From the IMG/VR virus record IMGVR_UViG_3300027834_000005, positions 248,001 through 312,000 of that record: a stretch of 64,000 bases of DNA; one strand, given 5' to 3'. Below the pieces are notes generated by a model that saw only the letters and a list, made by a program, of their open reading frames with translations, did not search any database and was not told where the DNA came from. Below, piece by piece: positions 9,224 through 31,783 of the stretch (position 1 is the stretch's first letter; each line of letters begins with the position of its first letter). The position numbers and the translations under genes are program-made. Source of the DNA: a virus.

Positions 9224-9382
9224 ATGAGTAATTTTCAAGGTAAAGGCGATTGGCAAAGACCAACGCAAGTAAGTATGGCTGAAAGCGATTTACGCTGGGA
9301 GCTAATGAGTAGCAAGACTACTCAGGAACGTAAAGAAGAAATTTTATTAGTACTTGAATGTATGAAAGAAGAAAAAAAATGA
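9224..9382 (+). CDS. Small hypothetical protein (52 aa)
   Basis: Begins MSNFQGKGDWQRPTQ and ends in a Lys/Glu-rich tail. An AAGGA ribosome site lies seven bases before the ATG, and the stop overlaps the next start (ATGA), indicating translational coupling. Short GDWQRP-type proteins accompany head genes in other T4-like phages as I recall them. Function unknown. Confidence 0.7.
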   Translation: MSNFQGKGDWQRPTQVSMAESDLRWELMSSKTTQERKEEILLVLECMKEEKK

Positions 9383-9765
9383 GACTAAATGAATTTATAA
9401 CTGAAGGTAGAGTGGTAGGGTTAGATACGGAATACGTAGACGTCTCTGGTACATCTCTTAAAGGAAAAATTCAAGTACCATATCAAGCATTAGTTAATAT
9501 GTTTGGTGAGCCACAATCCTTCTATGATGATCCTCAATCGGATGTTAATGTCATGTGGGAAGTGGAACTGCAATATCAGGATGACACTACTGAGTACGGT
9601 GAAGGTCATGAATATGATACTGCAGCTACAACGATTTATGATCGTAGATACGATTATGATAAAGATAGGCGCATAGATCCAAATTCTATTACGGAATGGA
9701 ATATTGGTGCCAGATCTAACAACGAAGCTTGGATGCTGGAAAAATACATACGCAGCAATAGCTAA
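9379..9765 (+). CDS. Putative capsid-targeted internal protein
   Basis: A 128-aa protein starting at 9379 (MRLNEFITE, then GRV). This start closely resembles the T4 internal-protein leader MKTYQEFIAE, which is cut by the gp21 prohead protease after an I/L-x-E motif; here I-T-E ends at residue 9. The rest is acidic and tyrosine-rich (DTEYVDV, YDRRYDYDKDRR). Inference: packaged in the head and perhaps ejected with DNA. Confidence 0.6.
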   Translation: MRLNEFITEGRVVGLDTEYVDVSGTSLKGKIQVPYQALVNMFGEPQSFYDDPQSDVNVMWEVELQYQDDTTEYGEGHEYDTAATTIYDRRYDYDKDRRIDPNSITEWNIGARSNNEAWMLEKYIRSNS

Positions 9766-9786
9766 AATAAAATAAAGGATATTTTA

Positions 9787-11496
9787 ATGGATATTAATAA
9801 ATTACTAGAGTTAGCTGGCGTTACTCCTAGTGAAAAAACTAAGCTTGATGAGAATTGTGCTGGTGGATTTGCTGGAGTTATGGGTGGACAGGCTCAAGAC
9901 ATAGAAGAGACTGATGCTGAATCCCACACACAAGAAATTGAATACGATGAGACTATGGCTGAAGCTGAATGTCAAACACCGTATGACGATGGTCATGGTC
10001 AATATGGCGATAAATGTTTAGTTGGTGATTCTGCAGAATCAGCAGTTCCTGTGCCAGATCAAGTGTCAGGCGGAGAAGAAATTATAGTTGTTGATCTTGG
10101 AGAGAATGATTTCGAAGACGGCGGCGTAGACGATACTGAGCTAGAACTAGATTTCACTCAGAGTGGCGAGGAGCCAGAGATTTCAATGGTACAAAGTATT
10201 CCTAATGTTGGTGAAGTTCCTACTGACCATACAGTTGATCCATCTATGATGGTCCAAAAAATAGACACTATGCAACAAGGCGGAATGTCTTCAGACGTAG
10301 ATAGTCATGATATTGAAGAATTAATGGGTATGGCTTTAGATAGTATCACTGCTGTATATAATAAAGTTATGGGTAATGAACAGCCAGCTCCTATTGAAGC
10401 TCCTGCTCCAGAACAAGAACCAGCTCCTGTTGCAGCTCCTGCTCCAGAAGAACCAGCTCCTGTTCCGGCACCAGCACAAGGCGTTGAAAATGAGTTAGAT
10501 GAAAATCCATTAGCCGCTGCCGCAGCAGGCGCAGTTGCAGGTAAAGTTGCAGATAAGTTTATGGGTGAAGATGAATTTAGCGATGAATTCGATGATGACT
10601 TTAGTGGTGATGAATTTGGTCAAGAAGACGAACCTGATTTAGGTTATGGCGATGACGAAGTAGAAATGGATGCCGACTTTGGTTCTATGGACCCAACTAA
10701 CGACATGGCACCAGCTAGAACTATGGACCATAACGTTCAAGATAGTTCATCTATGGTTGCTAAGATTATGGCTATGCAAGACAGCGGAATGTCTTCTGCT
10801 AAAGCACAATACAATGCTGACTCATTAGTTAATATGAGTCCTGATATGTTGCTTAGAGTGCATAATAAAGTAATGGGTCAAGGCCTTGAAGAAGAAGATG
10901 ATAACTGGGGCGGAGAGTCTGGATACCAAACTCAACCAGATGATACAGAAGGCCATCTAAGAGGCACTTCACCTTATAATGGCGGAGAAGGTTTCCCTAC
11001 AGGCCAAGCAAGTAACGCAGCATCTCACATCGGTAATACTGGTGGTGATTTCAAAGATAATCCTCTAGGTAATAGCGATCCTGTTACTCAAGTAGAAGAG
11101 TCAACTGATGACATCCACAATAGACTTTCAGAAGCATTTGATTCTTTCTGTGAAGATTATGAATCTATGATTGAAGCTGAGTTAAACGAAATTGGCGGAA
11201 TGCGCATTGCTGGTGGACCTTCATCTATGAGGTCACGTGGTTATGGCCTAGGAAGTAAAAAGTCTGGCGGTAAAGTTGAACGTAGACGTAGTGAAGAGCC
11301 AGTTAAGAAAGAAAGACGTAATAAGCCAGAAGTTGATGAAGCAGGCTGTGAAGCAAGCGTTCAGAAAATGAAAGGTGATATGTCTCCTACTAAAGCTAAT
11401 TTCAGAGCTGCTACTGGTCATGATGACTACGAAGGCATGGAAGAAGGCGGCAATTTCACTAAACGTAATGAAGCGCCTAGAAAACCTAGAGGCTAA
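9787..11496 (+). CDS. Large acidic Pro/Ala-rich protein with internal duplication (putative head core protein)
   Basis: A 569-aa strongly acidic protein. Segments: an N-terminal MDINKLLELAG leader with an L-D-E cleavage-like site at residues 20-22; an APAPE-type linker (about residues 200-235); an Asp/Glu-rich tract; and a basic patch (residues ~495-520). About 45 residues near 153-197 and 317-363 are similar (MMVQKIDTMQQGGMSS versus MVAKIMAMQDSGMSS, each ending near NKVMG), an internal duplication. Acidic low-complexity proteins of this type occur in prohead cores. A strong terminator follows. Confidence 0.6.
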   Translation: MDINKLLELAGVTPSEKTKLDENCAGGFAGVMGGQAQDIEETDAESHTQEIEYDETMAEAECQTPYDDGHGQYGDKCLVGDSAESAVPVPDQVSGGEEIIVVDLGENDFEDGGVDDTELELDFTQSGEEPEISMVQSIPNVGEVPTDHTVDPSMMVQKIDTMQQGGMSSDVDSHDIEELMGMALDSITAVYNKVMGNEQPAPIEAPAPEQEPAPVAAPAPEEPAPVPAPAQGVENELDENPLAAAAAGAVAGKVADKFMGEDEFSDEFDDDFSGDEFGQEDEPDLGYGDDEVEMDADFGSMDPTNDMAPARTMDHNVQDSSSMVAKIMAMQDSGMSSAKAQYNADSLVNMSPDMLLRVHNKVMGQGLEEEDDNWGGESGYQTQPDDTEGHLRGTSPYNGGEGFPTGQASNAASHIGNTGGDFKDNPLGNSDPVTQVEESTDDIHNRLSEAFDSFCEDYESMIEAELNEIGGMRIAGGPSSMRSRGYGLGSKKSGGKVERRRSEEPVKKERRNKPEVDEAGCEASVQKMKGDMSPTKANFRAATGHDDYEGMEEGGNFTKRNEAPRKPRG

Positions 11497-11536
11497 TTAG
11501 AACACTGGGAAGATTCGCTACCGACCCGTTGTACGT

Positions 11537-11560
11537 GGGGGCTTAACGGCCCCCTTTTTT
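11537..11560 (+). terminator. Rho-independent terminator
   Basis: Stem GGGGGC/GCCCCC with loop TTAACG and six T residues. Ends the unit begun before the small terminase. Confidence 0.9.
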
Positions 11561-11571
11561 ATGGAGACAGA

Positions 11572-11985
11572 ATGAAGATCACAGAGATACTAAAAGAATA
11601 CGAAAGTCGATATGGCGAAGATGAAGGCCGTACATTAAAAAATCCATTACCGCATATAACTGGTGATGATAGGCTGTTCGGTCATATATTTGATTTGTAC
11701 GATGATACTGTTGGAGAAATAGCAAGTACCCTAGACATAGCAGATAATCCAACTAAATGGAAAAAAGCTACCTCAATGGCAGCTACAACACATACCGTGC
11801 CTATTAAAGATATTGTTGGTACGGAGAAATACCTTGACCCTCGTGGAGCTAAGTCTAGAGATTTACCAGTTCTGGTTTTGTATGAAGGTAAATATTACGT
11901 TCTTGACGGTAACCATAGAGTTTATGCCGCCCACGCAAATGGTGAGAAGGCTATACAAGCATCAGTTATACAGGTAGAAGACTAA
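11572..11985 (+). CDS. ParB-like domain protein with capsid-targeting-like leader
   Basis: A 137-aa protein. The C-terminal part (LPVLVLYEGKYYVLDGNHR, then VYAAHANGEKAIQASVI) matches the ParB/sulfiredoxin-type fold, whose DGNHR-like loop binds nucleotide or acts as a nuclease in some members. The N-terminus MKITEILKE, then Y, fits the capsid-targeting pattern with an L-K-E cut site. This suggests a DNA- or nucleotide-acting enzyme carried in the head. It starts just after a terminator with no obvious promoter of its own. Confidence 0.65.
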   Translation: MKITEILKEYESRYGEDEGRTLKNPLPHITGDDRLFGHIFDLYDDTVGEIASTLDIADNPTKWKKATSMAATTHTVPIKDIVGTEKYLDPRGAKSRDLPVLVLYEGKYYVLDGNHRVYAAHANGEKAIQASVIQVED

Positions 11986-12224
11986 TGAGATTATATGAAT
12001 TTATAGAACCAGATATGCTAGGTAAACCTACATTGTCCGCAGAAGAAGTTGCCGGTAAACATGGCGTTCCTTTAGAGGTTATAACGCGTCAGCTGGCCAT
12101 TGGCACACAGGTAGAAAAAGAACATACTGGTGACGAATCCATAGCAATGGAAATAGCTCTTGATCATTTGGCAGAAATGCCAGACTATTATAGTAGATTA
12201 CAGGATATGGAAAATGAAGCTTAA
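11985..12224 (+). CDS. Small phage protein, DUF5661-like, with capsid-targeting-like leader
   Basis: A 79-aa protein overlapping the previous stop by one base (TAATG). The region EVAGKHGVPLEVITRQLAIG with VEKEHTGDES and IALDHLAEMPDYY matches a conserved phage domain I recall as DUF5661 (function unknown). The start MRLYEFIEPDM resembles the T4 internal-protein leader but the cut site is less clear. Confidence 0.65.
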   Translation: MRLYEFIEPDMLGKPTLSAEEVAGKHGVPLEVITRQLAIGTQVEKEHTGDESIAMEIALDHLAEMPDYYSRLQDMENEA

Positions 12225-12254
12225 CGAAATACAGTTTACTCTTACGAGAGTATA

Positions 12255-12527
12255 TTAGTCATATTCTGTGACAAGCATAAGGGCTATTCTAATATCGTTA
12301 AAGGACAGCCCTTTAAACCATTCCCCTTTAGTTCTGTATTTTTGTAGACTCCTATGAAGTTCCTTTTCAACTGCGTATGGATTTATTTTCCCTTCAGTAT
12401 ATTCCAATAAAAGCTCTTCGCTATTGCCTGTTTGTAACTGCCTAAGCCTATGCTCAGGGTTCTTAGCAACTCCAATTTTATATGCGTCTCCGCATGAAAT
12501 TATGTATACGAAACCGTTGTTTTCCAT
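12255..12527 (-). CDS. GIY-YIG / T5orf172-type nuclease-domain protein
   Basis: A 90-aa minus-strand protein. FVYIISCGDAYKIGVAKNPEHRL with later AVEKELHRSLQKYRTKGEWF matches the compact GIY-YIG variant found in T5orf172/MUG113 proteins: paired YI, the R, and the final E-W-F. I chose the ATG at 12527 (MENNGFVYI) with AGGGA upstream; the longer TTG start would lie in the promoter. Possibly a small homing-type or host-DNA nuclease. It is alone on the minus strand, divergent from the large terminase. Confidence 0.75.
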   Translation of the reverse strand: MENNGFVYIISCGDAYKIGVAKNPEHRLRQLQTGNSEELLLEYTEGKINPYAVEKELHRSLQKYRTKGEWFKGLSFNDIRIALMLVTEYD

Positions 12528-12547
12528 AGTTATATCCCTAAAACCCC

Positions 12548-12555
12548 TATTTATC
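12548..12555 (-). promoter_or_regulatory. Late-type promoter box GATAAATA (minus strand)
   Basis: GATAAATA on the minus strand with predicted start near 12542 and a short AGGGA-containing leader. It forms a divergent pair with the box at 12567-12574, only 11 bp apart. Confidence 0.7.
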
Positions 12556-12566
12556 AAGGCTTTTGT

Positions 12567-12574
12567 GATAAATA
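12567..12574 (+). promoter_or_regulatory. Late-type promoter box GATAAATA upstream of large terminase
   Basis: GATAAATA, predicted start near 12580, then CGGAGA and the ATG at 12596. Confidence 0.75.
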
Positions 12575-12595
12575 AAATAAACTGCGGAGATAATT

Positions 12596-14176
12596 ATGGC
12601 AGGCATAGATGATACTAAATTCATTAAGAAACCAAATCAGCTTAGTGAATATACACCAGAACAACTAGAACATTTTAAAAAATGTACCGATCCGGTAGAC
12701 GGGCCTTTATACTTCATGGAGAACTTCATGATGATACAGCATCCAATATTAGGCTCATTACTTTTTGATCCATATGAATATCAAAAAGACCTTATCGCGT
12801 CCTATGTAAAACATAGACAGCAGATATCTTTACTGGGAAGACAGTTAGGAAAAACTACGTGCGCGGCAGGGTATCTTTTATGGTATGCTATGTTCATGCC
12901 GGATTCATATATACTAGTTGCGTCTAAGACAGGTTCGGATGCAATAGACATCATGGATAGGGTTAGATATACCTACGAGAACTTACCGGATTACATTAGG
13001 GCCGGTGTGCGAGAGTACAATAAAAAATCAATGAAGTTTGATAACGGTTCAACAATCGTGTCAACCACAACAACAATAAATACGGGTCGTGGTAAATCCA
13101 TATCCCTTATCTATCTCGATGAATTTGCGTTCGTTGATCCACCAAGAGTGGCAAAAGAATTATGGACTTCACTGTCACCTACATTGTCTACGGGTGGTAA
13201 AGTAATCCTAACAAGTACGCCTAACTCAGATACAGATCAGTTCGCTGAAATTTGGCATCAAGCCCAAGAGAAACATGACGAATACGGTAACTTATATCCT
13301 AACGATACCGGCATGAACGGATTCGGGTCATACTTTGCTACATACGAAGATCATCCAGAACGTGATGAAGAGTGGGCAAGAATAGAAAGAAATAAAATTG
13401 GCGATGAACGATTCAGACGTGAGCATTTGGCCGAATTTATTGTATTCGAAGAAACGTTAGTAAACTCTGTTAAATTATCAGATGCGAAGACTAAAGAGCC
13501 TTTCCGTAAGTCAGGACAAGTACGTTGGTTCAAACAAATCAGAGAAGATCAAACATATGTCGTTTCATTAGATCCGTGTATGGGTACTGGTGGCGATAAC
13601 GCTGCGATAACCATATGGGAAATGCCATCGATGGAACAAGTGGGCGAGTGGTATCATAACAAGACGTCCATTGAAGGACAAATGAAAGTGTTAAGAAATA
13701 TTTTACTTGAGATATGGGAACACGGCAAACCTGAGATCTATTGGTCATTAGAATCCAACACATTAGGTGAAGCGGCACTCGTTATTATCAGGGACACTGG
13801 GGAGGAGAATTTTCCAGGTACTTTCTTATCTGAACGTAAGAGTGATGGTGGTAATCGTAAGCGTAAAGGTTTCACTACGACCAGTAAAAACAAACTGAAG
13901 TCGTGCTCTAGGTTCAAGCAATGGTTCGAGAGTGGCAAGTTAACAATACATTCGTCTCCAATGATAACCGAATTGAAGAACTACATCGCTAGGGGTAACT
14001 CCTATCAAGCCAAAGAGGGCTGTAAGGATGACTTGGTGTCTTCTGCGCTAGTATTCATTAGGATGGTTGAGAGCATCTCAAGGTGGGACGAAGACACTTA
14101 CGGCACCATTAATAGTAACATTGATGATGATTACGATGAAGACGATGGTAGAATCCCATTGCCACTTATCATGTAA
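12596..14176 (+). CDS. 17: Terminase large subunit (T4 gp17-like)
   Basis: A 526-aa DNA-packaging motor with ATPase and headful nuclease domains. Visible motifs: Walker A SLLGRQLGKTT (residues 78-88), Walker B LIYLDE (171-176), coupling STPN (207-210), and the RNase-H-like nuclease triad D326 (VVSLDP), E386 (WSLES) and D478/D479 (CKDDL). Slightly shorter than T4 gp17 (610 aa). Own late promoter and CGGAGA ribosome site. Catalytic residues appear intact. Confidence 0.97.
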   Translation: MAGIDDTKFIKKPNQLSEYTPEQLEHFKKCTDPVDGPLYFMENFMMIQHPILGSLLFDPYEYQKDLIASYVKHRQQISLLGRQLGKTTCAAGYLLWYAMFMPDSYILVASKTGSDAIDIMDRVRYTYENLPDYIRAGVREYNKKSMKFDNGSTIVSTTTTINTGRGKSISLIYLDEFAFVDPPRVAKELWTSLSPTLSTGGKVILTSTPNSDTDQFAEIWHQAQEKHDEYGNLYPNDTGMNGFGSYFATYEDHPERDEEWARIERNKIGDERFRREHLAEFIVFEETLVNSVKLSDAKTKEPFRKSGQVRWFKQIREDQTYVVSLDPCMGTGGDNAAITIWEMPSMEQVGEWYHNKTSIEGQMKVLRNILLEIWEHGKPEIYWSLESNTLGEAALVIIRDTGEENFPGTFLSERKSDGGNRKRKGFTTTSKNKLKSCSRFKQWFESGKLTIHSSPMITELKNYIARGNSYQAKEGCKDDLVSSALVFIRMVESISRWDEDTYGTINSNIDDDYDEDDGRIPLPLIM

Positions 14177-14181
14177 AAATT

Positions 14182-14189
14182 GATAAATA
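14182..14189 (+). promoter_or_regulatory. Late-type promoter box GATAAATA
   Basis: GATAAATAGAAG, predicted start near 14195, then AAAGGGA before the GTG start at 14214. Confidence 0.7.
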
Positions 14190-14213
14190 GAAGCAGATAA
14201 AGGGAATTATACT

Positions 14214-15890
14214 GTGATCGATCCGAAACGTGTAAAAGAGCGTGTATTTAAAGCGCTAAAAAGCCAAGGTTACCAAATCAAGATGTACGATGATGGCGGT
14301 ATGGCTACTGTGGATGCTGAGTTAGCATCCAGATTCTACGTTGAAGACCCTAATCTTCTCATCCATGTTGATGAAGAAGACGAAGAGGTCAATTTCAATA
14401 AGAACGGTAACATACCTCTTAGTGATTTTGAGAAAGCAATGTGGGCTGTTAAAGCGGTTGCGAAAGAATACATGTATAAATTCACGATAAGAGAATACGG
14501 TAAGCATATAACACCTAAAGATTTTTCATACCAGACAAAGAAAGGGGATCAAATGGAAAGCGTCCAAGAATCTGCCATGTACGGCACCAAAAAAACCAGC
14601 AGACAGATGATCGAAAATGTTTGTTTGGTAGTCAAGCATAAGAAAGAAGTAGATGAAAGCGTTAGAGGCGCAAGATCTAGAAATATCCAAAGTATCTTTT
14701 TGGAAAGCAACGGGGAAAGATATAAGTTTCCTCACACCAACTTGAACGGTGCTAGAGCAATGGCGCGTCACTTCGCTAACGGCGGATCTAGCCATGACGT
14801 TATTGGCGAGAGTATTGTAAACCTCACTGGAAAAATGTTAGAACTTAGAGAGTTCTACGTTTACTCTAAAAGAAATAAATTAGTAACCGAAGACACCACT
14901 GAAGTGATTGCTGCTCTTAGAGAGAGTATCAATGCTATTGCTGGTGACCTTAAATCAATTTACGGCAAGAAGAGTTACACTAGTGCTACTCAAAGAATTG
15001 CTGAACAAGAAAATTTTATAGCTGAAGACGACGACGGCATTGATTATAGAGATATGTTCACTGTTAAGAAATTCGATGAGAAATTCGAAGCAGTATTGCC
15101 TGTAGTCAGCAGCATTGTACAGGAAAGAAACATGAAATTAAGACGTATTGAAGAATCTTCTCTGGAAAGAGTAAAAGCAACATCTTTTAAGTTTACTGAG
15201 AGTGCTGCTGTTACCTTTGAAAGTAGTACTGTTAAAATGGGACACAGATTGAAAGCTGTGGCACTATCTATCAATGAGAATCCAGAATTAGCCACGTACA
15301 TCGGTTCTATCGGTGGCAAGATGATTTCTGAAGGTGACATTAGTGATTTCGAGAAGTCTGTAGTTAAGAACGTTCTAGAGAACATTACTATGGTATCTGA
15401 AGATGAGCCACAAGATCTTATTTCTGAGTCCGTACGTAAGTTAAGCGAGAAGTTAACAGATATCGAAGATAACGTATACGATAACTTCATTAATGAAGGT
15501 ATGGGTGATGCTATGTCTAGAACTAAACAAGGGGCTAAGTCATTCCAGCGTGAAGCTAATGATGAATTGATGGACCTTGGAACTAGACTTAAAGCTATTC
15601 AGCAGAAAATGAAACAAGGCGAAGGCGTTGAAGAAGGCGTGGAGCGCATGAGTAGCGACGAAGTACATAATTCTACTCTTATGCAATTCAGGCAAGCAGT
15701 GGATCGCTTCGAAGCTGCTAGAAGAGCCATGAAAATTGCTCATAAGCTTAAAGATAAACAGTCTAATGCTAGGCATCAGAAGCAGATCATGATAAACATG
15801 AATAAGCTAAGAGCTGACGTACAGCAACTTGAAAAGAGTTGGGGTATAGGAAGAAATGAAATACCTAACCATCTATTACCTCAAGAGTAA
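14214..15890 (+). CDS. Large late protein of the T4-like virion/head class, function unknown
   Basis: A 558-aa protein starting at GTG (AAAGGGA upstream). The N-terminal ~110 residues (VKERVFKALKSQGYQIKMYDD, then FTIREYGKHITPKDFSY) form a block I recall as conserved in marine T4-like phages without a firm function. The rest is helical and charged, with repeated short motifs such as LITE/LVSE/FINE. The late promoter and position after gp17 suggest a virion or internal head protein rather than an enzyme. Confidence 0.65.
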   Translation: MIDPKRVKERVFKALKSQGYQIKMYDDGGMATVDAELASRFYVEDPNLLIHVDEEDEEVNFNKNGNIPLSDFEKAMWAVKAVAKEYMYKFTIREYGKHITPKDFSYQTKKGDQMESVQESAMYGTKKTSRQMIENVCLVVKHKKEVDESVRGARSRNIQSIFLESNGERYKFPHTNLNGARAMARHFANGGSSHDVIGESIVNLTGKMLELREFYVYSKRNKLVTEDTTEVIAALRESINAIAGDLKSIYGKKSYTSATQRIAEQENFIAEDDDGIDYRDMFTVKKFDEKFEAVLPVVSSIVQERNMKLRRIEESSLERVKATSFKFTESAAVTFESSTVKMGHRLKAVALSINENPELATYIGSIGGKMISEGDISDFEKSVVKNVLENITMVSEDEPQDLISESVRKLSEKLTDIEDNVYDNFINEGMGDAMSRTKQGAKSFQREANDELMDLGTRLKAIQQKMKQGEGVEEGVERMSSDEVHNSTLMQFRQAVDRFEAARRAMKIAHKLKDKQSNARHQKQIMINMNKLRADVQQLEKSWGIGRNEIPNHLLPQE

Positions 15891-15897
15891 TTAGGGG

Positions 15898-15926
15898 TTG
15901 TGTTGAGTCGTTGGGTGTGTTATAAT
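15898..15926 (+). promoter_or_regulatory. Sigma70-type promoter P1 for gene 32 region
   Basis: TTGTGT, 17-bp spacer, TATAAT followed by AGCGC. The same -35, spacing and TATAATAGC element recur ~100 bp downstream, so gene 32 has tandem promoters. Confidence 0.6.
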
Positions 15927-15996
15927 AGCGCTCAGCGGCGTTATGACACATTATAGTAAGTATATAATAAATATTATAAAGTTGCAACAATAACCA

Positions 15997-16025
15997 TTGT
16001 GTAACGCACGCTTTTGTGGTATAAT
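15997..16025 (+). promoter_or_regulatory. Sigma70-type promoter P2 for gene 32
   Basis: TTGTGT (15997-16002), 17-bp spacer, TATAAT (16020-16025) followed by AGCCGC. Predicted start near 16032 leaves a ~125-nt leader before the gp32 ATG. Confidence 0.7.
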
Positions 16026-16036
16026 AGCCGCATAAA

Positions 16037-16078
16037 CTGATGAGGGATAGCTCGAATCATCAGTATACGAAAAGAGCT
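16037..16078 (+). promoter_or_regulatory. Candidate pseudoknot operator in the gp32 leader
   Basis: CTGATGA (16037-16043) pairs with TCATCAG (16057-16063). AGCTC inside the loop (16049-16053) can pair with GAGCT (16074-16078), giving an H-type pseudoknot. It is followed by ~80 nt of A/U-rich sequence to the ATG. T4 gp32 represses its own translation by nucleating on a leader pseudoknot and spreading over unstructured RNA, so the layout matches. Structure is by eye only. Confidence 0.5.
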
Positions 16079-16157
16079 TATGGGAACGTCCAAGAAGGAC
16101 CGACCTATCTGGAATATATCTAGAAAAAGAACTGGAATAATTAAAGGAATAATTATA

Positions 16158-24510: not shown

Positions 24511-25074
24511 TTATTTGTGTCTACCGCGATGGCCGCCTGCTGTTCTACTGTAGGTCTTATCGTTCCACCTTTTGTCAGTCTTCATTTTACTGGCTGCTCT
24601 TATGCCAGCATCATCACTAATGTCATTAGCTTTGTTGTTCATGGCACCTTCTATTTTTCTGAATCTTTCTACGCTTAATGAGCCATTCTTTTTCAACTCG
24701 ATAATTGCTTGCTTAGCGTTAAGGTTACCTTTCTTATTATCTAGAATATATTGGTATATTTCTGGATGTCCAGCTTTGAAGTCTTTAATGCTCTCATAAT
24801 CATCTGGATTATAACCCATGGATAGTTTACCCTCTACTTTGTCGGTGTAACCTTTACCATGACAATTGGTGCATATCTTAGTAGGGTTGGTGTCTCCACC
24901 TTGCATAAATTCGTTATTATTTCTCTGTAAAGGTCTGCTGATTCCCTCTTTACCGCTACCCTTACACTGTGGGCAAGTCTGCGCTATAGAGCCATCTGGT
25001 AAATTAATATGGTCTCCGCCTGTTCTGTAGTCAAGGCTAGAACCTTCTCTGTCTACGATTTCTGAAATGATCAT
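24511..25074 (-). CDS. Late protein with DnaJ-type zinc-finger motifs
   Basis: A 187-aa minus-strand protein. Two CxxCxGxG motifs (CPQCKGSGK near residue 34 and CTNCHGKGY near 68) form one DnaJ-like zinc centre; no J domain is present. The N-terminus MIISEIVDRE resembles the capsid-targeting leaders of other late genes. The C-terminus is basic (KRWNDKTYSRTAGGHRGRHK). It has its own late promoter. It may bind unfolded protein or DNA in the head; function inferred only. Confidence 0.65.
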   Translation of the reverse strand: MIISEIVDREGSSLDYRTGGDHINLPDGSIAQTCPQCKGSGKEGISRPLQRNNNEFMQGGDTNPTKICTNCHGKGYTDKVEGKLSMGYNPDDYESIKDFKAGHPEIYQYILDNKKGNLNAKQAIIELKKNGSLSVERFRKIEGAMNNKANDISDDAGIRAASKMKTDKRWNDKTYSRTAGGHRGRHK

Positions 25075-25097
25075 TGATAGTGTCCGTTAGTTTACTG

Positions 25098-25105
25098 TAT
25101 TTATC
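25098..25105 (-). promoter_or_regulatory. Late-type promoter box GATAAATA (minus strand)
   Basis: GATAAATA with predicted start near 25092 and an 18-nt leader containing CGGAC before the ATG at 25074. Confidence 0.7.
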
Positions 25106-25111
25106 GTATAT

Positions 25112-25140
25112 TTGCTATAACGCGTAAGTTGTGGTATACT
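25112..25140 (+). promoter_or_regulatory. Sigma70-type promoter
   Basis: TTGCTA, 17-bp spacer, TATACT; predicted start near 25147, followed by TTGGAG and the ATG at 25160. Divergent from the late promoter at 25098. Confidence 0.6.
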
Positions 25141-25159
25141 TCCATTTTTGGAGAATACC

Positions 25160-25570
25160 ATGTCCGTGAATTTACAGGTCTATCGAGACAAATTAGAAAA
25201 AATAAAAAATATGAATAGGGTCTATAATAAAAGCGAACATGGCAGCGGCCTAACTAACTATGAAAACGGAAGTTACTCTATAAGTAACGACGGATCAACT
25301 AGATGGTACGATAAAGAAGGCAACCCACATAGGGGTGATGGTCTACCGGCTGTAATTGGACCAGGAAAATTAACACATTATCACCGTGGTAAACTACATA
25401 GAATAGATGGACCGGCACTCATTAGGCAAATTGGGTCCGACAAAGTCTATACTTGGTATGTAGATAATAAAAGAATAACCAGTTGGGAACAGTTCTCTGA
25501 CATGTCCGGCGTGCCATTAGAAGAAGTCATGTTAAAAGTTCTATCTGGGGATTGGCCACCTACGCCATAA
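25160..25570 (+). CDS. HRxDGPA-repeat phage protein
   Basis: A 136-aa protein with W-Y-x-x-x-G-x-x-H-R-x-D/G-G-P/L-A repeats: RWYDKEGNPHRGDGLPAV, then YHRGKLHRIDGPALI and TWYVDNKRI. Such repeats resemble MORN-like or YwqK-type modules common in phages, thought to mediate protein interactions. Start at 25160 set by TTGGAG. Precise role unknown. It precedes primase but has a separate promoter. Confidence 0.7.
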   Translation: MSVNLQVYRDKLEKIKNMNRVYNKSEHGSGLTNYENGSYSISNDGSTRWYDKEGNPHRGDGLPAVIGPGKLTHYHRGKLHRIDGPALIRQIGSDKVYTWYVDNKRITSWEQFSDMSGVPLEEVMLKVLSGDWPPTP

Positions 25571-25575
25571 ACATC

Positions 25576-25604
25576 TTGCCAAACTAGTGTTCCTATGTTA
25601 TAAT
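25576..25604 (+). promoter_or_regulatory. Sigma70-type promoter for primase
   Basis: TTGCCA, 17-bp spacer, TATAAT followed by AGCCGG. The usual start (7 bases after the -10) falls exactly on the primase ATG at 25611. Confidence 0.75.
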
Positions 25605-25610
25605 AGCCGG

Positions 25611-26630
25611 ATGCTACTAGACACTATTATAGAAACAATTGTACCGAAGTTAGGCGGGTTAAAAGCGAGTCGTAAAGGCTGGCAAACCCGTAACTGTCCA
25701 CTGTGCCCTCATAGAGGACATGGTATAGACAAAAAAAGCAGATTCGGGATGAAGATAGAAGGCGGTACGTCCGTCGCTGTCCATTGTTTCAACTGTGCCT
25801 TCAAAGCCAAGTATGGCAGAGGTTCATTAATCAGCAAAGATTTTGCTTGGTTTATGGAGACTATAGGGGTTCCGTCAGACGATGTCAAGAAAATTAAGTT
25901 CCAATCTTTCAGAGAGAAAGAAGCAGGCGAGATTTTCCAAGATGTTAAGGTTACTGAGGACTCTAGGTCTAAGTGGAAGAAGGTGGATTTACCACCAGAT
26001 TCCCGCTCTGTATTATTCTGGCTGGAAGCCGGTTGTAACGACAAGAATTTGGTAAAGGTTGCCAACTACTGTCTGGAAAGGAAACTTGACCTTACGGATA
26101 TGTACTGGACACCTAACACAGAGCACTCAATGCACAAAAGAATCCTTATGCCTTTCTGGTATAAAGATGAAGTTGTAGGATACAGCGGGAGATACTATGT
26201 TGCGTCACCCGCAAAACACATACGCAGATACCTAAATTTGACTCCAGAAGATTTCATTTATAATCTGGATAAGCAATCTATGGACTATCCATTCATACTA
26301 CTTACAGAGGGCGTCATAGACGCGTATCTATGTAATGGTGTGTCTTGTATGGGAACAATGAACCAAGCGCAGATAGACATTATAAACAGTCTAGGAAAGA
26401 GAGTCATTGTCATCCCTGATAGAGATAAAGATGGTCAATCATTAGTGGACATAGCATTGGCTAATAAATGGGAAGTGAGTTTCCCTAACTGGCGAAAAGA
26501 TATTAAAGATGTGGGTAAGGCAGTTCAGGAATATGGAAGATTGCTGACTGTTAAATCGGTTATTGCCAGTGCCGAACATAACCCTATGAAAATAACACTA
26601 AAAAGGAAGATGGATAACTTTAATGAGTGA
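25611..26630 (+). CDS. 61: DNA primase (T4 gp61-like)
   Basis: A 339-aa primase making RNA primers for the lagging strand, partner of gp41. Zinc-binding motif C29/C32 (CPLCPHRGHG) and C59/C62 (HCFNC), then a TOPRIM domain with LLTEGVIDAY and VIVIPDRDKDGQ. The start at 25611 lacks a ribosome site and sits at the predicted transcription start, suggesting a leaderless message. It overlaps gp41 by 8 bp. Confidence 0.93.
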   Translation: MLLDTIIETIVPKLGGLKASRKGWQTRNCPLCPHRGHGIDKKSRFGMKIEGGTSVAVHCFNCAFKAKYGRGSLISKDFAWFMETIGVPSDDVKKIKFQSFREKEAGEIFQDVKVTEDSRSKWKKVDLPPDSRSVLFWLEAGCNDKNLVKVANYCLERKLDLTDMYWTPNTEHSMHKRILMPFWYKDEVVGYSGRYYVASPAKHIRRYLNLTPEDFIYNLDKQSMDYPFILLTEGVIDAYLCNGVSCMGTMNQAQIDIINSLGKRVIVIPDRDKDGQSLVDIALANKWEVSFPNWRKDIKDVGKAVQEYGRLLTVKSVIASAEHNPMKITLKRKMDNFNE

Positions 26631-28056
26631 TATAAAGGAATATACTGCTGATATTGAGAACATATTTATAAGATTTTTTGTGACCGACCCTTCACTATTC
26701 GTTAGATGCTTAGGTATCATCGATAGTGAGCATTATTCAGATGCTAATAATAGGAAAGTTGTATTCTTTTTGGCTGATTACGCCAAAGACTACAACGGAC
26801 TACCTACGTTAGAACAGATTAAGGCCGTTACGGGCGTCACAGTAGAAAAACTAACACAGTGCGATGACACGGAACGTGATTGGTTCTTAGATGAATATGA
26901 AAAGTTCGCAAGACATAAACAAATAGAAACAGCCATATTTGCTGCTCCAGATCTGTTGATAGAACACAGGTATGGCGAAGTAGAAGACATGGTAAAGCAA
27001 GCGGTGAGCGTAGGCTTAGTAAAAGACCTAGGTTTGGACTACTTTGCTGATCCCCTGCAGCGTCTTAATGACGTTGCTAATACCAGAGGTGCAATATCTA
27101 CTGGATGGGACGCGTTAGATGAGAAACTGTACGGCGGAGTGAATAGAGGTGAGCTATCTATATTCGCTGGACAATCAGGTGCCGGTAAATCTGTATTCTT
27201 ACAGAATATAGCTGTTAACTGGGTTGAGATGGGCCTGAACGTGATATACGTGACATTGGAACTTAGTGAGAATCTATGTGCCATGCGTATTGACGCTATG
27301 ATCACTGATCATGGAACCAGAGACGTTCTTAAGAATAGGGACGACGTACATCTTAAGCTAAACACCTTTAATAAGAAGTTTGGTGGATCACTTCGTATTA
27401 AACAGATGAAGAACGGATGTACAGCAAACGACATCAAAGCTTTCGTGAAGGAATATGAAATTCAAACTGGCATCAAAGTGGATGCGTTAGTATTGGATTA
27501 CTTAGATCTGTTCATGCCAACCAACGCTAAGATATCTCCAGAAAACTTATTCGTTAAGGATAAGTACGTAACGGAAAACTTACGTGATTTGGCAGTGGAA
27601 TTGGATACCCTATTAGCGACTGCGAGTCAGTTAAATAGATCGTCCCATGAAGACACCGTAGAGTTCACACACGCTAACATCGCTGGTGGTATGAGTAAGA
27701 TCAACACTGCGGATAACGTGTTTGGTATCTTTACTACGCCGACAATGAAAGAGAATGGTAGATACCAGCTTCAATTCATGAAAACGCGTTCTAGTGCCGG
27801 TGTTGGTTCTAAGATTGATCTTGGCTTTAATGTAAAAACGCTTAGGATACATGACTTGGCCCCAGACGCGGTAAGCTCTATACAGTTAAATACGACTGGA
27901 GTGATTAATAAGTTGGGAAGTGATCCTAGCGTAGTTACTGGTGGTACTGGTGCATCTCCTGCTCCTGCTCCTGCTGCTACTACAGATGATGATGGAAAGA
28001 CTCCGGCAGTTGGCGATTTCAATGCTTTACAGAGTATCATTAAGAAATTGAATTAA
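26623..28056 (+). CDS. 41: Replicative DNA helicase (T4 gp41-like, DnaB family)
   Basis: A 477-aa hexameric 5'-3' helicase. GWDALDEKLYGGVNRGELSI precedes Walker A GQSGAGKS (183-190); VTLELSENLCAMRIDAM and VDALVLDYLDLF (Walker B) follow. The C-terminus is a PAPAPAA-type linker with an acidic end. Coupled to primase by an 8-bp overlap. Length matches T4 gp41 (475 aa). Confidence 0.95.
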   Translation: MSDIKEYTADIENIFIRFFVTDPSLFVRCLGIIDSEHYSDANNRKVVFFLADYAKDYNGLPTLEQIKAVTGVTVEKLTQCDDTERDWFLDEYEKFARHKQIETAIFAAPDLLIEHRYGEVEDMVKQAVSVGLVKDLGLDYFADPLQRLNDVANTRGAISTGWDALDEKLYGGVNRGELSIFAGQSGAGKSVFLQNIAVNWVEMGLNVIYVTLELSENLCAMRIDAMITDHGTRDVLKNRDDVHLKLNTFNKKFGGSLRIKQMKNGCTANDIKAFVKEYEIQTGIKVDALVLDYLDLFMPTNAKISPENLFVKDKYVTENLRDLAVELDTLLATASQLNRSSHEDTVEFTHANIAGGMSKINTADNVFGIFTTPTMKENGRYQLQFMKTRSSAGVGSKIDLGFNVKTLRIHDLAPDAVSSIQLNTTGVINKLGSDPSVVTGGTGASPAPAPAATTDDDGKTPAVGDFNALQSIIKKLN

Positions 28057-28060
28057 ACTT

Positions 28061-28068
28061 GATAAATA
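28061..28068 (+). promoter_or_regulatory. Late-type promoter box GATAAATA
   Basis: GATAAATAGGGAA immediately after the gp41 stop; predicted start near 28074, only 6 nt (TGGAAG) before the ATG at 28080. Starts a late unit of internal-head-type genes. Confidence 0.7.
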
Positions 28069-28079
28069 GGGAATGGAAG

Positions 28080-28496
28080 ATGTATAACCCAAGAGTAACT
28101 AAAGATTTCGACACTTTCAGGATGTTCTTAAAATCGGAAGATATTGTATTATCTGATGACGGCAACTTAAGAAGTACTGAAGGGAAGAATTTTGAAATAT
28201 TAAAGCAAACTATTGGACTGAGGGCAATTCCCGAAAGTGTATCAGCATTAAAGAAAGTTAGATCAGTGAAAGATTTAGGATCTGAAAACTTTAAAGGAAC
28301 TGGGTACGTTTGGGATTTTGCTATTGAAGCAGTCGATATTTTTCTTGGTGATGACGGCAATCCGGTAGGATTATTACAGGATGAACTGAACGATACGGTT
28401 CTACCTTGTGGAAATGTTTTGAAAACGTCTGGTGACGATTTGAATTTGGAATTCTTAAAGGGAGATTTTGATGTTGATAGCGGAGATATTGAGTGA
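28080..28496 (+). CDS. Hypothetical late protein
   Basis: A 138-aa protein of mixed charge (MYNPRVTKDFDTFRMFL; C-terminus acidic, FDVDSGDIE). Preceded by a late promoter and GGAAG directly before the ATG. It overlaps the next gene by 26 bp. Not recognised. Confidence 0.6.
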   Translation: MYNPRVTKDFDTFRMFLKSEDIVLSDDGNLRSTEGKNFEILKQTIGLRAIPESVSALKKVRSVKDLGSENFKGTGYVWDFAIEAVDIFLGDDGNPVGLLQDELNDTVLPCGNVLKTSGDDLNLEFLKGDFDVDSGDIE

Positions 28497-28761
28497 AAGT
28501 GAAGACATCGATGAGTCTTTAGTATGGGGTCGTACTGGCACTAAGCTAAAAAAGAAATTCAGATGTACTAGTGGCCTTAGAAAAGGTCGCGTAGTATCCA
28601 GTCCAGAGCAGTGTAGTCTGCCCTTGGACATTGGTAAGAGCGTAAGCCTTAAAAAGACGAAGAAGAAATACGGAAGACGATTAGTTAAAAAAGCTAAGAA
28701 GACAAAACGTATAAATCCAGCGTCTAGAAAGTTGGTTATTATCAATAGGAGAAAGAAGTAA
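28471..28761 (+). CDS. Basic putative capsid-targeted internal protein
   Basis: A 96-aa protein: leader MLIAEILSE (L-S-E cut site) followed by SEDIDES, then a strongly basic region with KKKFRCTSGLRKGRVV, KKTKKKYGRRLVKKAKK and a conserved C-x(~16)-C. It resembles small DNA-binding internal head proteins. The ATG at 28471 has GGGAG upstream. Inference: packaged with DNA, and possibly ejected. Confidence 0.65.
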   Translation: MLIAEILSESEDIDESLVWGRTGTKLKKKFRCTSGLRKGRVVSSPEQCSLPLDIGKSVSLKKTKKKYGRRLVKKAKKTKRINPASRKLVIINRRKK

Positions 28762-29402
28762 TGTTCGATAGGATCGTAAAGGGAATATTAAACGAGGATG
28801 TATCATCAATTTTATCTCAGACTTACGGAGTTGATTCTTCAAAGGCTAGAGAGTTATTAAGGCAAATGTCATTTAGTGACTACACCGATCTAAAAGACGC
28901 TATTGATGCTAACGATACTCCTAAAGTGAAAGCTATACTTCATAGTAAAATTGCCATGGAAGGTAACGCATACACTGCGGCTAGACAAGGCACACAAGAT
29001 CCTATGGCGAACCAAGACCAAGATGACGAAATGGTTAACTTGGCAGCACTACAAAGTGGAGATATGGTTTCTACTGGTAGTGGAGACAGCAAGATTTCAA
29101 GCGTATCTATGATGGGCGATAAAACGACCATGCAAACAGATGACGGACAGCATATTTCTATTTCAGATATGCCTGATATACCTAACGCGCCAATCACCAA
29201 TAGGGATGATGCCATGGCGGAGATAGATCGTATTAGACAGTTAGCTGGGATAGAAGATGAAGCTATGGGTGAAGAGATTGGGTCACCTACGCCGATGACG
29301 TGTAAAGCGATGTCTCGTGATGGAAGTACCACTCCGAATCAGATAATCAAACGACACAGAAAGAACGAGAAACCAGGTCCAAAAACGGGCAGGACTCGAT
29401 GA
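28761..29402 (+). CDS. Putative capsid-targeted internal protein
   Basis: A 213-aa protein. The leader MFDRIVKGILNE, then DVSS, carries an L-N-E cut site. Next is a helical domain (residues ~13-70), a Gly/Ser/Asp-rich middle resembling a small beta domain (SGDMVSTGSGDSKISSV) and a basic tail (IIKRHRKNEKPGPKTGRTR). It overlaps its upstream neighbour by one base. Candidate internal protein. Confidence 0.6.
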   Translation: MFDRIVKGILNEDVSSILSQTYGVDSSKARELLRQMSFSDYTDLKDAIDANDTPKVKAILHSKIAMEGNAYTAARQGTQDPMANQDQDDEMVNLAALQSGDMVSTGSGDSKISSVSMMGDKTTMQTDDGQHISISDMPDIPNAPITNRDDAMAEIDRIRQLAGIEDEAMGEEIGSPTPMTCKAMSRDGSTTPNQIIKRHRKNEKPGPKTGRTR

Positions 29403-29869
29403 ATACACATAATGGATTAATTAAAAAGGAAACTATCGTGGAAACAGTTCAGTTGCTGGAACAAAAGATCAAAACTTATCAGTTAGACCAATTGGAAGAG
29501 AAGATCAAGGACGGTGTTAGCGTTGGCGAATATGTCATTCACTCTACTAGTCTCGGTTACGACATTCATCTTGGTAAGTATAGCGTATGTAAGAATCTAT
29601 ATAGTCTAGATACTGCATTCCTTATCGTCCAAGTTAAGTTAAAATCACCACATAAGAATATTTCCGACATCGTAAAAGCGGACCATGAGTACGGTAAGTA
29701 TAAATACGATACTCTAGTCTACAGTAATACAATTGCCACATCAGATAATATGTGCGCAGTGATGGTTGCTGAAGATAGATTGAACGAAGCAGTTGATAGA
29801 ATGAAGGATGCTAAGAAGATTCTTAGTAAACTAAGAATAGATATCAATGCGCCTATTTTTGATAAATAG
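29399..29869 (+). CDS. Hypothetical protein
   Basis: A 156-aa charged protein with helical N- and C-termini and a middle beta region (SLGYDIHLGKYSVCKN). Overlaps the previous gene by 4 bp. The next late promoter lies inside its last codons. Unknown function. Confidence 0.6.
   Translation: MNTHNGLIKKETIVETVQLLEQKIKTYQLDQLEEKIKDGVSVGEYVIHSTSLGYDIHLGKYSVCKNLYSLDTAFLIVQVKLKSPHKNISDIVKADHEYGKYKYDTLVYSNTIATSDNMCAVMVAEDRLNEAVDRMKDAKKILSKLRIDINAPIFDK
29861..29868 (+). promoter_or_regulatory. Late-type promoter box GATAAATA
   Basis: GATAAATAGTATG overlapping the end of the previous gene; predicted start near 29874, leader with ACAGGA before the ATG at 29896. Confidence 0.7.
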
Positions 29870-29895
29870 TATGAAACTACAGGATATAACAGGAT

Positions 29896-30873
29896 ATGTA
29901 CCTTAATCAAATTGAAATACATGATAAAAAGAAGCTATCAAAGCTTAATAACTATCTAAGTGAAAATTTTAAGATTAGAGTAGATGTTGATGGCGACAGC
30001 AAAGAGCTTCTTTCGTTGAGAGAACACGTTATTAACGAAATACACGAGCTAAAGGTTGTGCGCGGTTGTACCCCTAAAGATGCCGATTTAGGCAAAAGCT
30101 TGGCAATGCTTGAGGCAATTGATCTAATTTTGGCAAACCGACGCGCAGTTGTGGAATCTTCTGAGCGATTTGGCCCTTACTCAGGCATCGTAGATAAGAT
30201 GTCAGATGCAGTGGCTAAGTACGTGAATCAGGGCGATGACTTAGATTCAGCCATTTCTGTAGCTATGAGAGAATACCGCTCTAGCAAATACAGATATCCA
30301 GATCACGAAGTAGAACAAGACGTACGTCACAGTGTAGCTTCTAAGCTTATCGGTGGTGTAAATGACGTAGATGAAACTCTAGTCAAAGGTCTTGGAGTAG
30401 AAGTAGATGAAGCCGGTGATTTCTATCATCCAAATACCGATCACGGTTCTTTAGATAGAAAACCTAGAAGATCAGCAGCTCAAGACGTCCCTACTGCATA
30501 TACGCAGAGAGGCCAAAAAGCAGCATTCGGTCCACGTGATAGTGGCAGAGAAACTACCCCAGCAAGATCAAAACTTAACATGAGCGAAGATGGCGGACAG
30601 TATATTTATTTAGCTGACGAACCAAAACTAGCTTTCAATCCCAATACCAGCAAAGGTAACGCTATAGCCATGACAGGCTTTGATAGCGGCGGCGAAGAAA
30701 TTTCCTATCCAGTTAGAGTTAGATTCGTATATGATGACGCTGCTGGTCTCGTTAATATTATTACTATCGTTGATGGTGATGGTAGCGAAACAGGTACTGA
30801 ACTTGATGATGCTGAGAAAGCAACATTAGGACAAAACATTTTAGATGAATTAATGGCAAAGGGCATTTACTAA
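29896..30873 (+). CDS. Hypothetical late head/virion protein
   Basis: A 325-aa protein. Residues ~1-120 are helical (SLREHVINEIHELKVVRG), ~120-150 helical (VDKMSDAVAKYVNQGDD), ~175-240 low-complexity (PRRSAAQDVPTAYTQRG) and the last ~90 a compact beta domain with acidic end. Late promoter; overlaps the next gene by one base, so co-expressed with prohead-core-like proteins. Family not named. Confidence 0.6.
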   Translation: MYLNQIEIHDKKKLSKLNNYLSENFKIRVDVDGDSKELLSLREHVINEIHELKVVRGCTPKDADLGKSLAMLEAIDLILANRRAVVESSERFGPYSGIVDKMSDAVAKYVNQGDDLDSAISVAMREYRSSKYRYPDHEVEQDVRHSVASKLIGGVNDVDETLVKGLGVEVDEAGDFYHPNTDHGSLDRKPRRSAAQDVPTAYTQRGQKAAFGPRDSGRETTPARSKLNMSEDGGQYIYLADEPKLAFNPNTSKGNAIAMTGFDSGGEEISYPVRVRFVYDDAAGLVNIITIVDGDGSETGTELDDAEKATLGQNILDELMAKGIY

Positions 30874-31454
30874 TGAATGAGAATAAAAGTTACGTTAAAG
30901 AATTAAGAATAATTCTTGAAGGCGAAGTCGAAGAAGCAGAAGTAATTATGGCTGCTAGAGGTTTCAGTAAAGAACTTCAAGATATGATTCAGAAAGTTGG
31001 TCGTTTGGCCAATGAACAGGTTGGTCCTGTTGTAGATCAAATGCGTTTGACCTATGGCAGTGATATGGCTAACTCTTTCCAAGACACTGTTAAAGGTGAA
31101 ATGGATGCAGTATTACAAACACTAGCACAAGCTAAAGATACTTTAGATGATGTTGTAACAGACATTAGCAATGGTACAGTTCCAGGTGGAGTAGACATGG
31201 ACGAGTTTGGCGGTGATGAGCTAGGCGGAGAAATCGACGCTGAGATTGGTTTTGATGACGATGGTATTGATGGCATTGAAGGCGAAGTCGAAGGCGAATT
31301 CGATATTGATCCTGTTGGTGATGGCGAAGAATCATTTGATGATGAGTTCGGTGCTGAAGAGCCTTTAGGTAGAGCAGCTTTAGAATCTCGTAGATATGCA
31401 GTTGCCAAAAAGATCATGGAAACGGAAGCTAAGCTCAAGTCAAAGAGTAAGTAA
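30873..31454 (+). CDS. Putative prohead core / internal protein
   Basis: A 193-aa protein. The leader MNENKSYVKELRIILE, then GE, ends in an I-L-E cut site; a helical domain follows (IMAARGFSKELQDMIQKVGRL, MRLTYGSDMANSFQDTV), then a strongly acidic Asp/Glu/Gly tract (~105-165) and a basic C-terminal helix. The helical domain resembles a conserved protein of marine T4-like phages that I associate with the prohead core. Likely processed by the prohead protease. Confidence 0.65.
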   Translation: MNENKSYVKELRIILEGEVEEAEVIMAARGFSKELQDMIQKVGRLANEQVGPVVDQMRLTYGSDMANSFQDTVKGEMDAVLQTLAQAKDTLDDVVTDISNGTVPGGVDMDEFGGDELGGEIDAEIGFDDDGIDGIEGEVEGEFDIDPVGDGEESFDDEFGAEEPLGRAALESRRYAVAKKIMETEAKLKSKSK

Positions 31455-31783
31455 TGCGTTTATATCAGATCATTAAAGAAAACGATTCAGCCGACGATAT
31501 TATGTCGGCTTTGTCGTCTATGATTTCCGTGTTGAAATCAAAAGGACATGACAATATCCCTACTCAATATGCTGTACAGTATTTGAATAATATGGGACAA
31601 AATGTTGATGCTGAGTCACTTGCAAGTATTGCTGTTCAGAGTCCCTTTATTACTAGCGCTACTCCAGAAGAGTTGGTTATTGGTAATGAAGCTGAACAAG
31701 ATCTTGGCGCAGGAAATAACGAAATGAATCAGGACGTCGTCGGTCAGATGGCAACTGATACAGCTAAGAGGGATATAGGATGA
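31454..31783 (+). CDS. Putative capsid-targeted internal protein
   Basis: A 109-aa protein starting MRLYQIIKE, then NDSADD. The leader nearly repeats the MRLYEFI start of the 11985 gene and fits the I-x-E cut rule. The remainder is Gln/Asn-rich and helical (IMSALSSMISVLKSKGHDNIP). Overlaps neighbours on both sides. Internal head protein is inferred. Confidence 0.65.
   Translation: MRLYQIIKENDSADDIMSALSSMISVLKSKGHDNIPTQYAVQYLNNMGQNVDAESLASIAVQSPFITSATPEELVIGNEAEQDLGAGNNEMNQDVVGQMATDTAKRDIG

What the first reader, a model, noticed from the sequence alone, without database searches (positions are those of the whole stretch)
9379..31783. About ten late proteins share a T4-like capsid-targeting leader
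Proteins at 9379 (MRLNEFITE), 11572 (MKITEILKE), 11985 (MRLYEFIE), 28471 (MLIAEILSE), 28761 (ending ILNE), 30873 (ending IILE), 31454 (MRLYQIIKE) and 54961 on the minus strand (MRLIELFE), and less clearly 9787 and 24511, begin with a short leader like T4 IPIII MKTYQEFIAE. T4's gp21 protease cuts after I/L-x-E, which these match. Bodies are otherwise unrelated (ParB-like, basic DNA-binding, DnaJ-zinc, acidic). This suggests a large, modular set of proteins packaged in the head and possibly ejected into the host, and a rule for finding more.
Basis: partly seen in the sequence, partly recalled or inferred. Interest (0 to 1): 0.88.

Follow-up and report, generated by a model that had tools for sequence, protein, structure and literature searches.

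The report
Jumbo-phage proteins with head-packaging leaders
A 347-kb jumbo phage carries a dispersed set of otherwise unrelated late proteins with the same short N-terminal tag that phage T4 uses to load proteins into its head and then cuts off, so the tag marks probable cargo that would travel into the next bacterium; the tag is known from T4, while its spread here, and a second motif that some cargo shares with the scaffold protein, look new.

Summary
Eight window proteins start with a T4-like leader ending in [ILF]-x-E (four regular, four looser in length or spacing). Protein 9787 does not, and 24511 (MIISEIVDRE|G) is a variant. The strict leader form occurs at 7 of 555 called N-termini of this 347-kb virus, against 0.17 expected. 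The genome encodes the gp21-type protease (E=7.6e-29), and its major capsid protein carries the matching site (KRYIAE|SATSG).

Pseudomonas phage PA5oct is the nearest isolate with virion proteomics. Nine PA5oct proteins match leader proteins, 9787 or head-core genes (two weakly); eight are flagged ESI-MS/MS. Where window gene 30873 is fused to its neighbour in PA5oct, an LNE site stays at the junction. Two bodies carry a leader in phages with the protease and lack it in phages where none was found. Isolated leader genes have their own late-promoter motif (GATAAATA).

Packaging is therefore well supported; trimming and ejection are not shown. The motif also hits DNA ligases, so it is no proof alone.

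New lead: a LAG motif ends 77 of 77 scaffold proteins in this clade and recurs in about 12 further families, including 9787 and 28761. It may be a second loading signal.

The parts
9379..9765 (+). Leader protein, 128 aa; MRLNEFITE|GRVV
   Evidence: strict leader form; ATGA overlap with the upstream gene; no Pfam match; no PA5oct match
9787..11496 (+). Acidic 569-aa protein; not a leader: LAG motif at residues 6-12 (LLELAGV)
   Evidence: weak match to MS-flagged PA5oct gp281, which also starts with a LAG motif (E=0.013)
11572..11985 (+). Leader + ParB-like domain; MKITEILKE|YESR
   Evidence: homologous domain lies inside unrelated proteins of Stenotrophomonas siphophages; weak match to MS-flagged PA5oct gp343 (E=0.004)
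11985..12224 (+). Leader + DUF5661; MRLYEFIE|PDML, doubtful substrate (Pro at P1')
   Evidence: DUF5661 E=1.7e-18 at residues 19-78; other phages match only from residue 11 on
24511..25074 (-). Variant leader + DnaJ-type zinc motif; MIISEIVDRE|G
   Evidence: DnaJ_CXXCXGXG E=0.0034, below cut-off; own GATAAATA motif 23 nt upstream; EIVDRE shared with G000:241461
28471..28761 (+). Leader + basic gp68-like body; MLIAEILSE|SEDI
   Evidence: two homologs keep a leader at 47-50% identity; loose resemblance to gp68 core proteins
28761..29402 (+). Leader MFDRIVKGILNE|DVSS plus LAG motif IDRIRQLAGI at residues 158-164
   Evidence: PA5oct gp249, MS-flagged, has both features, E=2e-15
29896..30873 (+). 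Late protein MYLNQIEIHDKKK, leader-like start without a site in this phage
   Evidence: matches the N-terminal part of MS-flagged PA5oct gp247, which starts MFLKDVKITE; GATAAATA 27 nt upstream
30873..31454 (+). Leader MNENKSYVKELRIILE|GEVE + virion-protein body
   Evidence: phrog_14154 virion structural protein E=1.3e-15; PA5oct gp247 keeps LNE at the fusion junction; G001 homolog TLLE|S
31454..31783 (+). Leader MRLYQIIKE|NDSA + small conserved body
   Evidence: homologs G001 MRLSELVLE|S and MS-flagged PA5oct gp246 MKIKDILVE|S
54617..54961 (-). Leader MRLIELFE|TNDK + acidic body
   Evidence: own GATAAATA motif 5 nt upstream of the start; PA5oct homolog at 179881-180267(-) has MKIKEIILE|N from an internal ATG, not MS-flagged

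Best explanation
The leaders are capsid-targeting propeptides of the T4 kind. A late-expressed cargo protein is drawn into the prohead core by its 8-16-residue N-terminal segment (consensus M-[KR]-h-x-[E/D/Q]-h-h-x-E, h hydrophobic). The phage's S77 prohead protease then cuts after [I/L/F]-x-E, as it does in its major capsid protein. The trimmed body stays in the head with the DNA and is probably ejected at infection. The set mixes core-type proteins (gp67- and gp68-position genes, 28471) with accessory bodies (ParB-like, DUF5661, DnaJ-zinc, KTSC and a possible ADP-ribosyltransferase-like protein at G000:232467) that may act on the new host. Shown here: leaders, protease, matching capsid site, retention of leaders in homologs, virion detection of a relative's homologs, late-promoter motifs on isolated leader genes. 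Inferred: targeting, cleavage, internal location, ejection and host action.
For: Strict leader form 7 vs 0.165 in this genome, 3 vs 0.17 in PA5oct, 6 vs 0.46 in environmental relatives; DNA pattern 25 vs 5 reversed control, none in the two records without an S77 hit. S77 protease E=7.6e-29, catalytic motifs conserved, matching capsid site. T4's own substrates fit: gp24 MAKINELLRE|S, ipII and ipIII MKTYQEFIAE|A. PA5oct: eight of nine matched proteins MS-flagged; leader-type proteins 7 of 9 flagged against 93 of 445 overall, P=3.6e-4. Leader kept while bodies diverge; site kept at a gene-fusion junction. Same body with a leader where the protease is present and without it where none was found: ART-like body, DUF5661. 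Five of 14 leader genes have a GATAAATA motif, P=9e-4.
Against: No trimmed peptide has been seen; virion data come from a relative and do not give location inside the head, and that list includes enzymes such as ribonucleotide reductase. The first loose motif tried showed no link with MS detection, so the 7-of-9 figure is exploratory. The 54961 homolog in PA5oct is not MS-flagged. 11985 has Pro at P1'. Cr30 has the protease but a degenerate DUF5661 start. DNA ligases match the pattern without being plausible cargo.
Confidence: 0.75

Rival explanations
1. The leaders are ordinary N-terminal amphipathic helices of small late proteins; the [IL]-x-E match is coincidence or convergence and has nothing to do with head packaging.
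For: Loose versions of the motif are only about 2.5-fold above chance. Phage DNA ligases match the pattern with what looks like a normal ligase N-terminus. In T4 about 4 of 13 loose hits are expected by chance.
Against: The strict form is far above chance in three data sets, is kept while bodies diverge to 26-28% identity, stays at a fusion junction, and matches the phage's own capsid cleavage site. PA5oct counterparts are mostly virion proteins.
Confidence: 0.12
2. The leader proteins are prohead core or scaffold components that the protease digests and clears during maturation, not cargo delivered to the host.
For: The gp67- and gp68-position genes and the scaffold carry the same kind of site, and 28471 resembles gp68 proteins. 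T4 core proteins gp22, gp67 and gp68 are cut into fragments (PMC5694885).
Against: PA5oct counterparts are retained in virions by the record's MS flags. Several bodies are recognisable domains unlikely to be scaffold: DUF5661, KTSC, ParB-like here, and a GNAT acetyltransferase and an amidoligase in relative G001. This probably does apply to a few members.
Confidence: 0.13

Closest known systems
T4 internal proteins ipII and ipIII with capsid-targeting sequence MKTYQEFIAE
   Same: Short N-terminal leader ending in [IL]-x-E on bodies that are otherwise unrelated; S77 protease in the same genome; leader stands outside the domain.
   Different: Here the leader varies more in sequence and length, the set is larger and spread over the genome, and trimming and function are untested.
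T4 Alt, head-packaged ADP-ribosyltransferase
   Same: G000:232467 has a leader (MKIEQVLNE|N) and a weakly PARP-like N-terminal stretch.
   Different: No sequence relation to Alt shown; PARP match below cut-off (E=0.016) and the structure model failed.
T4 gp24 propeptide (MAKINELLRE|S) and gp67/gp68/gp22 core proteins
   Same: Same consensus; the head module has the same gene order (portal, gp67- and gp68-positions, protease, scaffold, capsid).
   Different: The scaffold here ends in the LAG motif, which T4 gp22 lacks.
Pseudomonas phage PA5oct virion proteins gp249, gp247, gp246, gp333
   Same: Closest isolate found (terminase 59%, capsid protein 82% identical); syntenic cluster whose products are MS-flagged except gp248.
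   Different: Its record calls them structural or hypothetical proteins; no leader is noted in the annotations read.
phiKZ/SPN3US ejection proteins with long propeptides
   Same: Jumbo-phage head proteins trimmed by a prohead protease (PMC5694885).
   Different: Their protease family (S80) and propeptides (over 100 residues, A-x-E or S-x-E) differ.

Membership tests
T4-type capsid-targeting sequence (CTS) proteins | Short N-terminal leader (about 6-20 residues) ending in [IL]-x-E | tested here: met
   eight window proteins, 11985 and 54961 with a shortened form
T4-type capsid-targeting sequence (CTS) proteins | Cognate gp21-type (S77) protease in the same genome, with a matching site in the capsid protein | tested here: met
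T4-type capsid-targeting sequence (CTS) proteins | Leader separable from the body: body exists without it | tested here: met
   ART-like body and DUF5661
T4-type capsid-targeting sequence (CTS) proteins | Protein present in virions | tested here: inconclusive
   Met for PA5oct counterparts by the record's ESI-MS/MS flags; no data for this phage
T4-type capsid-targeting sequence (CTS) proteins | Leader removed by the protease during head maturation | not testable with these tools
   needs semi-tryptic peptides from virions
T4-type capsid-targeting sequence (CTS) proteins | Leader sufficient to load a foreign protein into the head | not testable with these tools
   shown for T4 in the literature (PMC5694885, PMC3012670); needs a loading experiment here
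ADP-ribosyltransferase (for G000:232467) | Profile or fold match to an ART family over threshold | tested here: inconclusive
   PARP E=0.016, below cut-off, residues 8-37 only; no PDB sequence match; model pLDDT 35, unusable

The most novel reading that the evidence does not exclude
In this clade of T4-like jumbo phages, head loading uses two short linear signals: the cleavable N-terminal leader, and a helical LAG motif ([ILV]xxLAG[LIV]) that is the near-invariant C-terminal end of the scaffold protein. Several cargo proteins copy the LAG motif, sometimes together with a leader, perhaps to use the same docking site in the prohead. The two motifs would then let a jumbo phage's packaged proteome be read from sequence.
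Probability: 0.35. Interest if true: 0.8.

Novelty: new variant of a known kind. Interest (0 to 1): 0.62.

Why it matters
Most jumbo-phage genes have no assigned function, and proteins that enter the cell with the DNA act first against host defences. In T4, IPI inhibits a restriction enzyme and IPIII is needed on a particular host strain (PMC9391042). A sequence rule that picks out packaged proteins would give a short list of candidate first-strike anti-defence proteins, testable on existing virion samples of PA5oct. If the shared LAG motif is a docking signal, it would also say how cargo and scaffold meet in the prohead.

Tried and rejected
(1) A first loose leader expression showed no association with MS detection in PA5oct (6 of 32 flagged against 93 of 445 overall); only forms with a hydrophobic-x-acid-hydrophobic core did (four forms tried), so that result is exploratory. 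(2) 9787 as a leader protein: rejected; no cleavage site, carries the LAG motif. (3) DNA ligases in Va1 and PA5oct match the leader patterns; judged ordinary ligase N-termini from memory of T4 ligase, not aligned here. (4) Structure prediction of 232467 from a single sequence failed (pLDDT 35), so no fold search was run. (5) Searches for environmental relatives of 232467 and 28761 found none. (6) Recent copying of leader DNA: codons differ among leaders, with the possible exception of 9379 and 11985. (7) LAG as a general T4-like feature: rejected; absent at the scaffold C-termini of T4, S-RIM2, Va1, pf16, CBA120 and PhiW-14, degenerate in K64-1. (8) Known defence-system proteins among the cargo: none. 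(9) A library search for the LAG motif gave no relevant paper; that is a weak test, since short peptide strings are rarely indexed as words. (10) An early belief that the script box held only part of the loci was my own reading error.

Full report
WHAT WAS CHECKED. The window is bases 248001-312000 of a 347,232-base virus record. By terminase and capsid protein the closest isolate found is Pseudomonas phage PA5oct (59% and 82% identity). Four have the same length and pattern (9379, 11572, 28471, 31454), two are one residue shorter (11985, 54961), two lie further in (28761, 30873). 24511 is a variant. 9787 has no cleavage site.

IS IT MORE THAN CHANCE. The strict form M[KR][ILVF].[EDQ][ILVFM].{0,2}E occurs at 7 of 555 called N-termini in this genome, against 0.165 expected from internal positions. 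Because the pattern was taken from this genome, independent sets count more: 3 against 0.17 in PA5oct, 6 against 0.46 in environmental relatives. As a DNA pattern over 20 phage records it matched 25 times against 5 for the reversed control, and not at all in the two records without a protease hit. A looser expression, one member per family, gave 39 against 11.9. A still looser core motif is only about 2.5-fold enriched. In T4 the looser expression finds ipII, ipIII, gp24 and Alt among 13 hits, of which about 4 are expected by chance. So the pattern is real, but a single loose match means little.

THE PROTEASE AND ITS SITES. A gp21-type S77 protease lies at G000:160273-160734 (E=7.6e-29), between the gp68-position gene and the scaffold and capsid genes. 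Its GELDHP, VSSRG and VD motifs align with T4 gp21. The capsid protein carries KRYIAE|SATSG in the region of T4's cut, and the gp67-position gene starts MKKSDIINE|N. Over 28 proposed sites in three related genomes, P1 is always Glu (by selection), P3 is Leu or Ile in 25, and P1' is mostly Ser, Asn or Gly. T4 literature gives the same kind of site (ITE and LTE in Alt; PMC5694885).

VIRION PROTEOMICS OF A RELATIVE. The PA5oct record flags 93 of 445 proteins ESI-MS/MS. Nine PA5oct proteins match leader proteins, 9787 or the gp67/gp68-position genes of this phage. Eight are flagged: gp333, gp332, gp249, gp247, gp246, the KTSC protein and, by weak matches, gp281 and gp343. The ninth, at 179881, is not. 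PA5oct proteins starting M[KR]h.[EDQ]h are flagged in 7 of 9 cases (P=3.6e-4). That was one of several forms tried; a looser one showed nothing. The list also holds enzymes, so it is not a clean head proteome, and it says nothing about trimming.

CONSERVATION AND MODULARITY. The cluster at 28.1-32.7 kb is syntenic with PA5oct gp250-gp245 and with relative G001. 31454 and two homologs keep a leader at 26-28% identity. 28471 and two homologs keep theirs at 47-50%. Window genes 29896 and 30873 are one gene in PA5oct, yet an LNE site remains at the junction, just before the shared body. The ART-like body of G000:232467 has a leader (MISFKQHLNE|S) in Rhizobium phage RHph_I1_18, which has the protease, and none in Dickeya phage JA13, where no S77 protease was found. 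DUF5661 follows a leader (MKKSQLRQIIKE|A) in Flavobacterium phage immuto and has none in Vibrio phage VPs20, with the same protease pattern. Cr30 is an exception: protease present, start degenerate.

LATE EXPRESSION. GATAAATA occurs 51 times against 28 for its reverse and stands upstream of tail sheath, tail tube, terminase and other structural genes, mostly 20-30 nt from the start. Five of 14 leader genes have it, including the two isolated minus-strand genes 24511 and 54961 (P=9e-4).

BODIES. Window: ParB-like, DUF5661, DnaJ-type zinc motif, gp68-like basic, acidic. Elsewhere in this genome: KTSC (E=3e-11), a weakly PARP-like protein, and unknowns. In relative G001: a GNAT acetyltransferase (E=3.9e-7) and an amidoligase (E=4.8e-9). 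Such a mix fits packaged effectors, but no host target is known.

A SECOND MOTIF. 9787 led to a different signal. [ILV]xxLAG[LIV] ends 77 of 77 scaffold proteins next to the capsid gene in environmental relatives, as well as this phage's and PA5oct's scaffolds. It recurs in 9787 and 28761 and in their PA5oct counterparts. Taking one member per family, 41 of 1,269 families carry it against 11.6 in shuffles; 13 families, the scaffold among them, keep it in at least half of their members. Some proteins have both a leader and a C-terminal LAG. It is absent at the scaffold ends of T4 and five other T4-like phages and degenerate in K64-1. Sharing by scaffold and probable cargo suggests a docking role; that is inference. 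The library search found no relevant paper.

VERDICT. As a kind it is known, a T4 capsid-targeting leader, here in a larger and more dispersed set than T4's, with a possible second signal that appears new.

Noticed in passing
L003:12874-13959 (G000 scaffold); window 9787-11496 and 28761-29402; IMG/VR loci L063-L236: LAG motif [ILV]xxLAG[LIV]: ends 77 of 77 scaffold proteins of related phages and recurs in about 12 other families, some with a cleavable leader as well.
   Followed up: partly
window upstream of 621, 4612, 8060, 12596, 29896, 24511(-), 54961(-): GATAAATA, 51 copies in the genome, mostly 20-30 nt upstream of structural genes: probable late promoter. At 54961(-) and G000:241461 it ends only 5 nt before the start codon, so the messages may be nearly leaderless.
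   Followed up: partly
window 55592-56236: Second protease-like gene; its PA5oct homolog (57% identity, MS-flagged) is annotated head maturation protease but the start resembles ClpP (the ClpP resemblance is from memory). Not the S77 enzyme.
   Followed up: no
L147:4467-4913 (G000:232467-232913): Leader protein with GTG start and a weakly PARP-like stretch (HGT...STSR): possible head-packaged ADP-ribosyltransferase. Fold prediction failed.
   Followed up: partly
L005:8437-9279 (G000:196437-197279): 280-aa protein MKLQHIIESLNE|APIGDF under a GATAAATA motif: further leader candidate, no Pfam match.
   Followed up: partly
L147:2137-2481 (G000:230137-230481): 114-aa protein with a short piece resembling the major capsid protein (IRRTVPKLIAEDLVGVQPM): looks like a capsid-gene fragment far from the head module.
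   Followed up: no
T4 AF158101: 18966-19130(-) gp61.1 and 76061-76885(-) gp2: gp61.1 starts MKTFKEFIKE|D, almost the T4 internal-protein leader, and gp2 starts MAIFQIINE|S: possible further gp21 substrates in T4 itself.
   Followed up: no
window 8060-8719: Homolog of an MS-flagged PA5oct protein. Proteins with a similar start near the terminase in environmental relatives have a full leader (for example MKSFSDILIE|SKKTYSF), while this phage and PA5oct have a degenerate one (MQQFVDYYNA, MKSFRDYYDA).
   Followed up: partly
window 31780-32670: 296 aa against 111 aa in MS-flagged PA5oct gp245: only the two ends match, so an insertion sits in the middle.
   Followed up: no
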